Assembly: GCA_964023275.1 (NCBI GenBank)
Contig: OZ029914.1
Coordinates: 10,981,561 to 11,045,560, forward strand
Length of the DNA: 64,000 bases
Direction of reading: 5' to 3'
From: Norana najaformis
Taxonomy: Eukaryota > Annelida > Clitellata > Crassiclitellata > Hormogastridae
Of this stretch, positions 1,491 to 58,131 are shown in pieces (the stretch's first letter is position 1; every line of letters begins with the position of its first letter). The notes under the pieces were generated by a model. It saw only the letters and a program-made list of their open reading frames with translations, was not told the DNA's origin and did not search any database. Made by a program: the position numbers and the translations under genes.

Positions 1491-1551
1491 ATGGAGCATG
1501 CTCTAGTACTTCTAGTCACTAGCCTACTACTGAACGTCTTCCATAAATTTG
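1491..1551 (+). CDS. Gene 1 exon 1: signal peptide
   Basis: Twenty codons plus one base, starting MEHALVLLVTSLLLNVFHKF and ending at donor G|GTAAGT. The hydrophobic core (ALVLLVTSLLL) is a typical signal peptide. Gene 2 has a homologous exon of the same length and donor at 35140-35200. The start is the first ATG of this conserved frame. The exon ends in phase 1, and the shared G completes Asp-1 of the first Ig domain. Confidence 0.8.
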
Positions 1552-1928
1552 GTAAGTGCTTGTAAAAGTATCTAACTTTAAATCACTTACAATAACAATA
1601 TTCAGTTCGTAGAAGCTTACATGTTTTCAAGTTATCTAATGCGCTTGATTTTGTAAATAAGGAACTTTGTCGATAGAACGATGACCACTACAGGCCTAAA
1701 CTGGACTTTTAATAGAGACCTAACTGCAGCACATATAATTATATGGACTCTTGAATCTGATGTTGGGATCAAAAACTTTAAACCACATATAACTATATAT
1801 CGACATAACGGAAAGCCACGATCCTTCAGTGCGTAGGTGAGAATTTTATTTGACAGAAATAGGGTGTGATAATTATGAAGAATTGCGTCACAGCAATTAC
1901 TAAATTATGTTGAATTATGGAATTTTAG

Positions 1929-2228
1929 ATGCAGAGTTGAATTTGTTTCCTCGCGACACTGAAGTGTTGGCTAATGAATTGACTTACATGAACTGTTCGA
2001 CGTCTCTTGATGCGGAGAAAGTCCATTGGCGTCATGGCATTAAGTATGTTTACGCCGGAAGAGATATACTAGAACCGTATGATGTCAGGTTTTCGGTTGA
2101 AATTAACTCATCTACAGGAACAAACAATTTAGTTATTCGATCTGTCCAACCTTCAGATGCCGGACAATACGAATGTTTAGAGGACGAAGGGCACGGAGAA
2201 CAAAGATCGGCTCAGTTAATAGTGTTAG
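1929..2228 (+). CDS. Gene 1 exon 2: first Ig-like domain
   Basis: A 300-bp phase 1-1 exon between TTTTAG and G|GTATGT encodes a full V/I-set-like Ig domain. The B-strand Cys is in YMNCS, the C-strand Trp in VHWRHG, and the F-strand motif is DAGQYEC. NCS and NSS are N-glycosylation sequons. Being N-terminal and outermost, it is the likely ligand-binding domain. Against the gene 2 exon it differs at 20 of 100 residues, 16 of them in the first 49 codons. Confidence 0.85.
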
Positions 2229-2919
2229 GTATGTTTATATTTTACCGCTTTTCAAATTTTGAAAGTAGTGTCTGCTAAGACCCGAAATTATGGTGCCAGA
2301 AAACTCCAAGAACTTAAATTTTCGGTTGTCAAAACATTTTAGGCTGCCAGTCGCCAGATAGTTTTTGTCCAATTATTTAGAGAGGTTCAGTTATGCCTGG
2401 TTACAGTCTGCAATTACAGGTCTTGATTACTAGACACGTAATGTCTATAGGCGTTCTGACTAGTTAACAAATTAGTGTCTGCTGCTTTCAGACATTACAT
2501 TTTCTTGGAATAACTTGTGGGCTAATCTCTCGTTTTACCGATATGTTATGCAACTCTTGATTTTATCTGAGGCAGCCTTCCAACAGACAAACTCCATTTC
2601 TCGCCTTCTTTACAAACACAAGTGCTAAACATGCCGAGAGTTAAAATCTCACATTACTTATATTACGCTTGCGGAATATGTCGGCGAAAGCTTTGAAACC
2701 CCTTTAAATAACCAGGTATTCAAATATGTGGGCAAATGTTTGTTATTTAAACTTTTCAGAGAATTACTATGCTAGTAAACTTGAAAGTGAACCTGTTGAA
2801 GCCAGTGGAACTTTACAATTTTATCAAAACCTGGGTGTTACTTTAAGTTTTTTGTCGATTGATTACAGTCGGATAGTCTGAAGAATTCCTTGGGATGATG
2901 TAAGTCTAATGTGTTACAG

Positions 2920-54685: not shown

Positions 54686-56125
54686 TTGAGATAATCTCAG
54701 AAATGCACTTAAATTGTCGTTTAGAGCCATACTTAGGAATGTATGTCTTTCAGTGTTTGTGTCTCACTCTTTGCCTCTCTGTCTTCGTCTGTGTTTTATA
54801 TCATCTTCTGCGTTTCTGTTTCATTGATGAGTATTAGCAAGCAATGTCAGACAGTTGCTTCAGAAATCCATAATTTTTCTTGTAAAAAATGCCTAAAATA
54901 GAATTTTCTGCGTAACACTCCACAACAGTTTCAGATCGACATAGATTTATTTAATCTGTTCATTAAACTTAGCATTTCAGTTTCAGAAATACGAGAAACG
55001 AAGAGATAAGATCCAGACCTATAATTTTTGTTTTTGTTTTACAGCAATCGAAACACCAATGCTCTGTACGATAGAAGAAGAAGAACTAGAGGCCCTAAAA
55101 GAAGAACATGAGAAACAAAGACTAATCGGTACTGGTTAAACCTATAAATTTATGATGGCTGACTATATTGCAATTTAGTCTATATTTTGTCAAAAGTTCT
55201 AATCAAGTTTATTCAACATTATCCAGTTTTCTTTTCTACGGTGATACTAGTTATCATCTCGACTTTTCCAGTGCAGTTTTTATGCACCAAATAATGAGGC
55301 GCCTGATTCTAACAAGAATGCCTTTTCCAGGACTCTGGAACAGGCAGTGGTGATGGCCAAGATGGGTAGCGCGGTAGTGTGCAATTCAGACCCAACCACG
55401 GACAGGAAAGGCTGTGGGCATGTGCATGGGCCCTTTAGAAGCTGCACAGCCAATGACAACACCGAGCAACTGATCAACTTCTGCCTTGGAGCGGTTCTCA
55501 GAATCGGCGGATCGTGGTTCCAGCGCAAAGATATATGCTGAATGTCCTGGTATTCAAACGAGGGCATACCAGGAAGGAGTTGGATCACATACTTGTCAAG
55601 ATGGAGGCTGCTGCAAAACTGAGTGCAGCGTGGCATGGAATTTGACACTGACCACAGAACAGTTGTTGCCCGGCTAGAGATCAAATTCAGATGCCGGATA
55701 AGTAGATTTCCACCAAAGTCTCGATTCACCCTTTAAAAGACTGAACGACCCGAGCACTGAGCGTCTATTTGCCGCCGACATAAGAGAGAGGTTTGGTAGC
55801 GGGGCGGTGAATAAAAGGCCAGGAAAGACTGGATTGTAATAAGACACGTGGCAGCTGATACTGAGGAAGCACCCGGCCAGGATACCTGCCGAAAGAGAAG
55901 AATACAGGCCCCTACAGAAGAGTGCAGAATGGCCCTGAGACGGGATCGCCAGTTGTGTGCAGACAAAAAGGCGAGCGAACCTGAGGCTCCTCTCCACAAA
56001 GGGTAGTTGAAGGACGCTTTCACCAATTTTCGGAAGCTGCGATTGGCAAAACCCGATTTGCAAGCCCTGAAAAAGCTCGGATGCCCACCTTCTGAGCGAC
56101 AAGACCCATAAGATCCAATAATGGA
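54686..56125 (+). repeat. Intragenic tandem duplication, unit b (truncated)
   Basis: Second unit, carrying exon 6b and the LINE endonuclease fragment (55295-56125). It is cut at 56125 by a family A LINE end. Confidence 0.75.
55045..55128 (+). CDS. Gene 2 exon 6b: charged cytoplasmic exon
   Basis: 84 bp, TTTTACAG acceptor, G|GTACTG donor, phase 1-1. Encodes IETPMLCTIEEEELEALKEE and EKQRLIG. It is closer in sequence to gene 1 exon 6 (IEKPMLNTIEQEL, QRLIG) than exon 6a is. It can be spliced after exon 5 or after 6a in frame. Confidence 0.7.
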
Positions 56126-56545
56126 GGGAATATTACCTCATCCTTAAAATTTGGAAATCGCTTCACAGCCATAGCTGCCTCACCCCTCTGGAATAAACTC
56201 CCACCAGAATTACGACAATTATCTAATCCATCATACGAACTCACAAGCACTTCACCCCTTGCAATTTCTGCGCTGGTCTTTCACTCAAAACTGAAAGCAT
56301 TTCTTTTTCAAAAATCTTATCCTGATTCTTCCTCTTCCCCTTATCTCTCTTCTCGCTTCAATTATAAACACCATTCGCCTTAGCTGTCCGACTCTGATTC
56401 CTGGATCTTGACCTGGAACCGAACCATTTTGCTTATCGATATTTTTTGACTGAGCGCTTGTGAATAAGCTGGTTACCGTGACTTGGCTTTCGTTGGGCGC
56501 TGTAGAAATCTCGAGATTACCGTTACGATTACGATACTATCATGG
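56126..56545 (+). repeat. LINE 3' end, family A
   Basis: RT C-terminus pattern (AASPLWNKLPPELRQL-like, degraded), ATCTTGACCTGGAACCGAAC, GGGCGCTGTAGAAATCTCGA and an ATTACG tail. Confidence 0.8.
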
Positions 56546-57286
56546 AGTTAAGTTCATATAGTCTGCGAAATTTCTGAAGATTACGGTTTAGTTTTATTTA
56601 TAGATCGTTGACGTCACTGTAACTTATGTGGTCTTATGATAGTTGAGCGCCAAGTATTCAATCAAGATTCAAACTGAATGTGAATTAAGTTGTGAACGAC
56701 TAAGATTACAATATCTTGTCTTTACCTTCTGTATCATGCTTAACAAGTGCCTTTGAAAGTGTTTTACTAATTTCTTCATTTTATTATTTTTAAGAATAAT
56801 AAGCCTATTAATGATTTTGATGACTTTGCAAAATTTTCGTTTATAATATGTAGTAGTTAAGCAAGATTAAGTCTTATTATATTTTATGGTGTTTTGAAGT
56901 CCATTTCTGAAAGTGACGGCGGTCTACATGTATCCTTTGTTGTTGATTGCCTTGAAATTGCAATTGTTCCCGCTACCTGTATGATCTTCTCAATGTATCT
57001 TTGGTTGACGCTGTCTGTATGATCGTGTCTTTCTTTCTGTCGCTGTATCTCGATATCTGCCTCAGTTGGCGTTTATCTATGTTTGCCTGTCTGTATCATT
57101 TCCTTTAACGCCTTTCTCTCCTTCGCAGTTATGATCATCACCACCACTTTTCTCTTTTCTTCGAGTTCAAATATGCGAATCAAACAGTTCAAAAATATTT
57201 CTTATATTTTAGAAGTTTAGAACAAATATTGTTTTAAAAGGTATCAATATAACATTTAAAGTCATTGGATTTCTTTATACTTTCAG

Positions 57287-58131
57287 ATAAAATTCCAGAA
57301 AAATACAATTTGGCTCCAGTTTTAGTTCAGATGATGAGAACTGAACAGAAAGCGATCCGCGGATTGACGATCTTAGACAAAGAATTGTTTGTTGTGAGTA
57401 ACAAGAGTTCAAAAGTTGAAGTTTACGATTCGATGAAATTCACTTTTAATCGTCGATGGACTTTGAAAGAATTAATTGAACCAGAAGACATAAGATCCTG
57501 CAGCAGAAATAAATGTCTCTACATCTTCGACGTCAAAAAAGATCAGTCGGGGGAAATCCTGAGAGTTGATCGCAATGGAAAATTAATAAAGAAGTGGTCA
57601 ACAGGACATGATAAGGGATTCGGACTGTCTGTTACAGATGAATCGAATGCCATTTTAGCTGATTTTTGGAAAAATAAATTAAATGAATATTCACCAGATG
57701 GACAATTGATCCGTGAAATAAATCTATCATCAGGTATTTGTTTTCCAAGGCACGCTATAAAACTGACCAATGGCCATTTCCTGGTCAGTCATGGCGTTGA
57801 TGATGATATGCATAGATTGTGTGTAGTGGATGGAGATGGAAATATAAAGAAATCATTCGGCGGAAAATGTGGATCAAACATCGGACAGATGAATTATCCA
57901 GTCTATTTGGCTGTCGATGGAAATAGATTCGTGATGGTCGCTGATCGAGAGAACAATCGAATTTTGTTATTGGATTTAGATTTGGAATTTAAGAAAGAAA
58001 TTCTCTCAAACAAAAAACATGGATTAATAAAACCACGAAGGGTTCTTCTTGATGAGACAAATGGTCGACTGTTTGTGGCCGACAAGGAAGGCATCAATTC
58101 ACGGATTTTTATTTTTGAGTTTATGAAGTGA
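57287..58131 (+). CDS. Gene 2 exon 7: six-bladed NHL/TolB-like beta-propeller
   Basis: Acceptor CTTTCAG at 57286, phase 1, stop TGA. 281 codons, without the few-residue insertion near the start seen in gene 1 (NAAEEQKK). Blade signatures: EILRVDRNGKLIKKW, LNEYSPDGQLIREINL, CVVDGDGNIKKSFGG, LLDLDLEFKKEIL. No catalytic motif. Cytosolic by topology. Blade 3 (EYSPDGQLIREINLSS) is identical in both copies, while loops differ. Confidence 0.87.

What the first reader, a model, noticed from the sequence alone, without database searches (positions are those of the whole stretch)
1491..58131. Tandem pair of receptors with three Ig-like domains outside and a beta-propeller inside
Seen: two direct copies with the same eight-part exon order, phase-1 junctions, lengths summing to multiples of three, and a last exon that lacks its own start. 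Known: Ig ectodomains are common recognition modules, and NHL/TolB-like propellers are usually soluble or attached to TRIM proteins. Inference: a receptor that couples Ig recognition directly to a cytosolic NHL-like propeller, which I do not recognise as a described architecture. Self/non-self or pathogen recognition is a plausible role.
Basis: partly seen in the sequence, partly recalled or inferred. Interest (0 to 1): 0.88.

Follow-up and report, generated by a model that had tools for sequence, protein, structure and literature searches.

The report
Ig receptors with cytosolic NHL propeller
Two neighbouring animal genes seem to encode cell-surface receptors with antibody-like domains outside the cell and a TRIM-type NHL propeller inside, a layout that resembles vertebrate butyrophilins but uses a different inner sensor, and they belong to a large unnamed family.

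Summary
The observation largely holds. Two direct copies (1491-15891, 35140-58131) have matching exons: leader, three Ig-type exons, TM exon, linker exon(s) and one NHL exon, joined in phase 1. "Same eight-part order" is wrong: copy 2 has eight exons (two linkers); copy 1 has six sure exons plus a linker exon whose ancestral acceptor is lost. A broken third copy lies between them. Exon 7 models confidently (pLDDT 96) as a six-bladed propeller closest to TRIM-NHL domains. Ig domain 1 is certain; 2 and 3 rest on a weak model. No cDNA of these genes was available. Relatives give partial support: one ORF joins Ig1-Ig2-Ig3-TM, another joins leader-TM-linker-NHL; none with both Ig and NHL was found. 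A profile search gave 139 relatives of TM-linker-NHL; long ones carry CARDs, coiled coils or TM segments before the same propeller. I read this as a butyrophilin-like receptor with NHL in place of B30.2. The propeller's top loops are its most variable part, so sensing may be cytosolic, but dN/dS does not exceed 1 there and no ordinary TRIM-NHL control was run. Function and source organism are unknown.

The parts
1491..1551 (+). Copy 1 exon 1: start codon and hydrophobic leader (by eye), ends in phase 1
   Evidence: matches copy 2 exon 1
1929..2228 (+). Copy 1 exon 2: Ig domain 1
   Evidence: Pfam ig 8.2e-08, I-set 5e-06; 81% identical to copy 2
2920..3240 (+). Copy 1 exon 3: Ig-like domain 2
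   Evidence: no Pfam hit; weak beta model of relative P0001; present spliced in P0001
6688..6933 (+). Copy 1 exon 4: Ig-like domain 3 (five Cys)
   Evidence: no Ig Pfam hit; weak model; present spliced in P0001
7298..7396 (+). Copy 1 exon 5: transmembrane segment with basic end; reading on into the next intron gives a stop after two codons
14081..14143 (+). Copy 1 exon 6 (possible): charged/Q-rich linker from an alternative acceptor; the ancestral exon would start near 14053 but its AG is lost
15023..15891 (+). Copy 1 exon 7: NHL propeller and stop, no own start
   Evidence: Pfam NHL below cut-off in this copy; 64% identical to copy 2 exon 7
35140..35200 (+). Copy 2 exon 1: start codon and leader
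36312..36611 (+). Copy 2 exon 2: Ig domain 1
   Evidence: Pfam I-set 4.7e-09
37232..37555 (+). Copy 2 exon 3: Ig-like domain 2
38841..39086 (+). Copy 2 exon 4: Ig-like domain 3
39486..39581 (+). Copy 2 exon 5: transmembrane segment
51677..51760 (+). Copy 2 exon 6a: charged linker exon
55045..55128 (+). Copy 2 exon 6b: charged linker exon (paralogue of 6a)
57287..58131 (+). Copy 2 exon 7: NHL propeller and stop
19565..19653 (+). Third copy remnant: 3' part of an Ig3 exon with broken frame and stop
20038..20133 (+). Third copy remnant: transmembrane exon with AG and GT at its ends

Best explanation
Each copy encodes a type I membrane receptor: leader, three Ig-like domains, TM helix, short charged linker, and a cytosolic six-bladed NHL propeller. 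They belong to a large, fast-diverging family of NHL proteins in which the same propeller is joined to different front ends (leader-TM, coiled coil-TM, CARD-like/coiled coil, three CARDs). I propose that it works like a butyrophilin with NHL in place of B30.2: the variable top face of the propeller binds a cytosolic ligand, and the linker/TM passes the change to the Ig ectodomain (or ectodomain clustering exposes the propeller). Shown: exon anatomy, propeller fold (predicted with high confidence), family size, TM-NHL fusion in a relative's ORF, top-loop variability. Inferred: Ig-TM exons spliced to the NHL exon in these two genes, topology, ligand in the cytosol, immune role, direction of signalling.
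For: Collinear phase-1 exons in both copies with coding-type conservation. The TM exon has no stop of its own and copy 1's E7 no start near its 5' end, so each needs a spliced partner. P0001, a 361-aa ORF from a 1356-base contig, runs Ig1-Ig2-Ig3-TM; it fits the predicted E2-E3 and E3-E4 joins and has about ten extra residues between Ig3 and TM. P0052, 401 aa from a 1707-base contig, runs leader-TM-charged linker-NHL; its linker ends in LI, as do E6b and copy 1's E6 but not E6a. P0039 joins an E/R-rich stretch to the propeller. In 35 relatives whose ORF reads past the start of the NHL exon (43 pattern hits less 8 mis-hits), the junction residue, placed by eye, is A, D, E, G or V, as a phase-1 acceptor requires. 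Propeller. Front ends: P0126 with three CARD stretches (Pfam 1.7e-24), P0124 CARD-like by a weak match only (E 0.17), P0085 coiled coil-TM by eye. Variability: top loops 2.39 bits (70 positions), bottom loops 1.64 (49 positions), P about 1e-5; copies 1 and 2 differ at 36 of 70 top and 14 of 49 bottom positions, P 0.015.
Against: No protein with both Ig and NHL among the hits of two searches that could have shown one; each scored only the roughly 8000 candidates sharing most words. P0001 reads on into intron 5 instead of joining a linker exon and lacks exon 1. Copy 1 lacks the ancestral linker acceptor. Copy 2's E7 has in-frame ATGs 15-16 codons in. dN/dS in the propeller is 0.79 overall and 0.85 in top loops, not above 1; dS is also raised in the top loops (0.57 against about 0.24), so gene conversion or misalignment could explain part of the variability. 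The N:S ratio of the propeller does not differ significantly from that of the Ig exons (P 0.19). No control shows how variable the top loops of ordinary TRIM-NHL proteins are. The source organism is unknown.
Confidence: 0.55

Rival explanations
1. Outside-in receptor: the Ig domains recognise a ligand or a neighbouring cell (allorecognition or adhesion), and the propeller is only the effector arm, for example docking partners or binding RNA as Brat and TRIM71 do.
For: The ectodomain resembles cell-adhesion Ig proteins such as NCAM, contactin and IgLON5/NEGR1. The propeller's nearest solved structures include RNA-bound Brat, Lin41 and TRIM71.
Against: The propeller has a higher proportion of non-synonymous change between the copies than the Ig exons (P 0.0003) and varies most in its top loops across the family, unlike a conserved effector. 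Relatives keep the propeller but lack Ig domains (P0052, P0124, P0126).
Confidence: 0.27
2. Two interleaved genes: an Ig-TM gene that ends inside intron 5, and a separate cytosolic NHL gene that starts at the in-frame ATG of a linker exon (or, in copy 2, inside E7).
For: Linker exons of both copies contain an in-frame ATG, and copy 2's E7 has two near its start. Reading into intron 5 gives a stop after two codons in all three copies, and P0001 shows such a read-through. Raised from 0.10 to 0.12 on rechecking, because of the ATGs in copy 2's E7.
Against: Copy 2's linker exons have phase-1 acceptors matching the TM exon's phase-1 donor. P0052 has leader, TM, linker and NHL in one ORF. The order TM-linker-NHL is kept in both copies. 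A start inside E7 would cut into the strand that closes the propeller.
Confidence: 0.12
3. One or both copies are decaying pseudogenes and the open frames are leftovers of a recent duplication.
For: A third copy is clearly broken, copy 1 lost a linker acceptor, retroelement pieces lie in the introns and flanks and dN/dS is high in exon 7.
Against: No stop and only in-frame gaps in E1-E5 and E7 of both copies; 5.5 stops would be expected in E7 under neutral drift, P of none 0.004.
Confidence: 0.08

Closest known systems
Butyrophilins (BTN/BTNL) of jawed vertebrates
   Same: Membrane proteins with Ig-like domains outside, short cytosolic heptad repeats and a C-terminal B30.2 domain (layout from passages of PMC4046983), a domain also found in TRIM proteins. 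BTN3A1 senses a cytosolic ligand with its intracellular domain and signals inside-out (abstract of PMC10533412).
   Different: C-terminal domain is an NHL propeller, not B30.2; three Ig-like domains instead of two (one or four in BTN-like molecules); linker exons of 84 nt. No homology of the ectodomain to BTN was shown.
TRIM-NHL proteins (TRIM2, TRIM3, TRIM71/LIN-41, Brat, Mei-P26, Thin)
   Different: No RING, B-box or filamin domain seen in front; Ig and TM exons instead. 15-22% identity in the structural alignments.
IgLON/NCAM/contactin-type Ig adhesion proteins
   Different: Has a TM helix and a large cytosolic propeller; ectodomain model is of low confidence (pLDDT 65.8).
CARD-NHL and TM-NHL relatives found here (P0126, P0124, P0085, P0052), unnamed
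   Same: Same propeller family (43-55% identity to the query).
   Different: Front ends differ: CARDs, coiled coils, short stalk plus TM; no Ig domain seen in them.

Membership tests
Butyrophilin | Ig-like ectodomain followed by TM | tested here: met
   Ig1 by Pfam, TM exon by sequence, joined in the ORF of relative P0001; not seen as mRNA of these genes
Butyrophilin | C-terminal B30.2 (PRY-SPRY) domain | tested here: not met
   no SPRY family among the Pfam hits of E7 at E up to 1; model is a six-bladed propeller at pLDDT 96
Butyrophilin | Short helical linker exons between TM and C-terminal domain | tested here: inconclusive
   E6a, E6b and copy 1 E6 are short charged phase-1 exons; helix not modelled, use in mRNA not seen
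Butyrophilin | Intracellular ligand sensing with inside-out signalling | not testable with these tools
   needs binding and cell assays
TRIM-NHL | Six-bladed NHL propeller at the C-terminus | tested here: met
   (copy 2 above cut-off, copy 1 below)
[quoted passage not shown]
   exons upstream encode Ig/TM; no RING or B-box among Pfam hits of the eight exons scanned (E2, E3, E4, E7 of both copies; E1, E5, E6 not scanned)
Immunoglobulin superfamily | Ig fold in domain 1 | tested here: met
   I-set 4.7e-09, ig 8.2e-08; PDB matches to NCAM/contactin
Immunoglobulin superfamily | Ig fold in domains 2 and 3 | tested here: inconclusive
   no Pfam Ig hit; low-confidence beta model that aligns over residues 1-282 with three-Ig IgLON5/NEGR1
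Allorecognition receptors of colonial invertebrates (recalled, e.g. Hydractinia Alr) | Polymorphic Ig ectodomain controlling fusion or rejection | not tested
   no population data, source species unknown

The most novel reading that the evidence does not exclude
An animal lineage has built an NHL counterpart of the vertebrate B30.2 system: one diversifying propeller, varying on its ligand-binding top face, has been shuffled onto CARD adaptors, coiled-coil and TM proteins and Ig receptors. The Ig-TM-NHL members report a cytosolic signal to neighbouring cells inside-out, as BTN3A1 does.
Probability: 0.3. Interest if true: 0.9.

Novelty: new variant of a known kind. Interest (0 to 1): 0.72.

Why it matters
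Butyrophilins couple Ig display outside the cell to a sensor inside it, and how such receptors arise is an open question. A receptor with the same order but another TRIM C-terminal module would suggest convergent construction of the same logic. The large family with CARD-bearing members gives a direct way to ask whether NHL propellers can act as diversified immune sensors.

Tried and rejected
TolB-like propeller: no TolB family among the Pfam hits of E7, and TRIM-NHL domains lead in sequence and fold. Positive selection on the propeller: not supported, dN/dS below 1 overall and in top loops, and dS raised there too. Sister grouping of the two window propellers: not recovered in a FastTree of 103 propellers (support 0.18 at copy 1's parent node, 0.85 at copy 2's), not interpreted. 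Organism: not identified. Loci with flanking DNA: none found with one propeller query each in viral contigs or genome contigs. A loose first count of intron read-through (53 of 90 judged) included truncated ORFs and was replaced, whose pattern list I drew up after looking at these sequences. In the ectodomain fold comparison most rows are two-domain antibody chains that cover about residues 1-206 only; families absent from that list are not excluded.

Literature: nine searches; others (20 of 25; 12 of 24; 12 of 1,545) listed only part of what matched. No listed title or abstract start describes an Ig-TM-NHL receptor. Papers read: PMC8242945 (passages and section 13; its figure legend lists IG and NHL among sponge receptor domains without saying in the text which architecture carries NHL, and the figure was not seen), PMC10533412 (outline and abstract), PMC4046983 (passages). 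Other titles were seen only in listings.
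Full report
What is there. The window contains two direct copies of a gene on the + strand. Copy 1: exons 1491-1551, 1929-2228, 2920-3240, 6688-6933, 7298-7396, a doubtful linker exon ending at 14143, and 15023-15891. Copy 2: 35140-35200, 36312-36611, 37232-37555, 38841-39086, 39486-39581, 51677-51760, 55045-55128 and 57287-58131. Apart from the doubtful copy 1 linker, internal exons start after AG and end before GT. E1 ends in phase 1 and E2-E5, E6a and E6b are multiples of three, so the junctions are phase 1.

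The eight-part claim. Only copy 2 has eight exons. In copy 1 the linker exon is recognisable (50% and 54% identical to linker exons of copy 2 over 30 and 24 residues), but the two bases before it are AA, where copy 2 has AG twice. A downstream in-frame AG would give a 63-nt exon, 14081-14143. A third copy is reduced to a broken Ig3 fragment (19565-19653) and a TM exon (20038-20133), so the array once had at least three members. The last exon lacks a start in copy 1. In copy 2 two in-frame ATGs lie 15-16 codons inside it, within the strand that closes the propeller.

Coding evidence. DNA identity is 84% (E1), 88% (E2), 84% (E3), 86% (E4), 79% (E5) and 79% (E7), against 71-78% in the introns and flanks compared. 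The seven gaps in these exon alignments are all multiples of three (one each in E3 and E5, five in E7), against 8 of 48 non-coding gaps. The linker comparisons with copy 1 each show a one-base gap because the interval began a base early. Simulated neutral drift of E7 gives 5.5 stops on average and none in 0.4% of 5000 runs; for E2-E4 the test has little power (none in 22-29%). Pairwise dN/dS is 0.45 (E2), 0.70 (E3), 0.51 (E4) and 0.79 (E7). E1 (0.74) and E5 (2.4) rest on 20 and 31 codons. The propeller has a higher proportion of non-synonymous change than E2-E4 together (P 0.0003), but the ratio of non-synonymous to synonymous changes does not differ significantly (P 0.19).

Relatives. The first protein search (copy 2, 651 aa) gave 4 hits among 7996 scored candidates. 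P0001 (62% identical) is a 361-aa ORF on a 1356-base contig. It starts inside Ig1, fits the predicted E2-E3 and E3-E4 joins, has about ten extra residues between Ig3 and TM, and after the TM reads into what looks like intron 5. P0002 is a propeller ORF. The profile of TM-linker-NHL (A2, 3 rows) gave 139 hits among 7997 scored candidates; 120 were listed and all 120 read. Of the 96 rows aligned in A3 (2 window exons and 94 of the 120; long-fronted and short partial ones dropped), 73 match Pfam NHL at E up to 0.01. P0052 (401 aa on a 1707-base contig) has leader, short stalk, TM, charged linker and propeller in one ORF, so a TM-linker-NHL fusion exists in this family; the contigs themselves were not seen. 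The third search (a chimeric query scored on its TM-linker-NHL part; 16 hits among 7996 candidates, 6 of them strong family members) added P0124 (622 aa: N-terminus weakly like the APAF1 CARD at E 0.17, long coiled coil, propeller), P0125 (481 aa, no known domain in front) and P0126 (797 aa: three CARD stretches, Pfam 1.7e-24, then propeller). Leaders and coiled coils are called by eye. None of the hits had both Ig and NHL. That absence counts against the model, although many relatives come from contigs of 1-4 kb.

Exon boundary across the family. Of 43 pattern hits, 8 were mis-hits and were dropped (P0037, P0066, P0071, P0094, P0099, P0108, P0115, P0122). In the other 35 the ORF reads from intron-like hydrophobic residues into the propeller exon, and the junction residue is A, D, E, G or V, which a phase-1 acceptor demands. 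The pattern was drawn up from these sequences and the junction placed by eye, so this is a loose test.

Where the variation lies. On 96 sequences the top loops (b-c and d-a) have a mean entropy of 2.39 bits (70 positions), the bottom loops 1.64 bits (49 positions), P about 1e-5. 18 of the 30 most variable positions are in top loops. Copies 1 and 2 differ at 36 of 70 top and 14 of 49 bottom positions, P 0.015. The top face carries bound RNA in the Brat and LIN-41 complexes (recalled; those entries appear). Cautions: dS is raised in the same loops (0.57 against about 0.24), which points to gene conversion or alignment error; dN/dS there is 0.85, not above 1; no ordinary TRIM-NHL set was run as a control.

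How it probably works. Butyrophilins are described as Ig-like domains, TM, heptad repeats and B30.2 (PMC4046983, passages), and BTN3A1 senses a cytosolic ligand with its intracellular domain and signals outwards (PMC10533412, abstract). The gene here has the same order with the NHL module. That resemblance is of layout: the B30.2 feature was tested and not met, so it is not a butyrophilin. Likewise it is not a TRIM protein. The CARD-bearing relatives make an immune role likely, and the variable propeller makes cytosolic sensing the best guess. Outside-in recognition by the Ig domains is the main rival.

Limits. 

Noticed in passing
window 19565-20133: Remnant of a third tandem copy: broken end of an Ig3 exon and a TM exon with AG and GT at its ends.
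   Followed up: partly
P0124, P0126: Proteins that join a CARD-like/coiled-coil front (P0124) or three CARDs (P0126) to the same NHL propeller family; no listed paper of the nine searches describes them.
   Followed up: partly
window 7397-7404, 39582-39589, 20134-20141: Reading into intron 5 gives a stop after two codons in all three copies, and relative P0001 seems to read into this intron: a possible tail-less Ig-TM isoform.
   Followed up: partly
window 11480-11945 and 14500-14970: Near-identical direct repeat inside the long intron region of copy 1 (the same 81-aa ORF is listed twice); both match the end of copy 2's last intron.
   Followed up: no
window 41587-42126 (-), 47094-50095 (-), 52890-53918 (+), 62611-63606 (+): Retroelement fragments: reverse transcriptase in four ORFs and an endonuclease in a fifth, out of ten ORFs scanned.
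   Followed up: partly
window 25385-27121 (-): Two adjacent long ORFs without Pfam hit, perhaps parts of a transposon gene (by eye).
   Followed up: no
window 57289-58128 against 15025-15888: Synonymous divergence is about twice as high in the propeller's top loops as elsewhere, which may mean local gene conversion between paralogues.
   Followed up: partly
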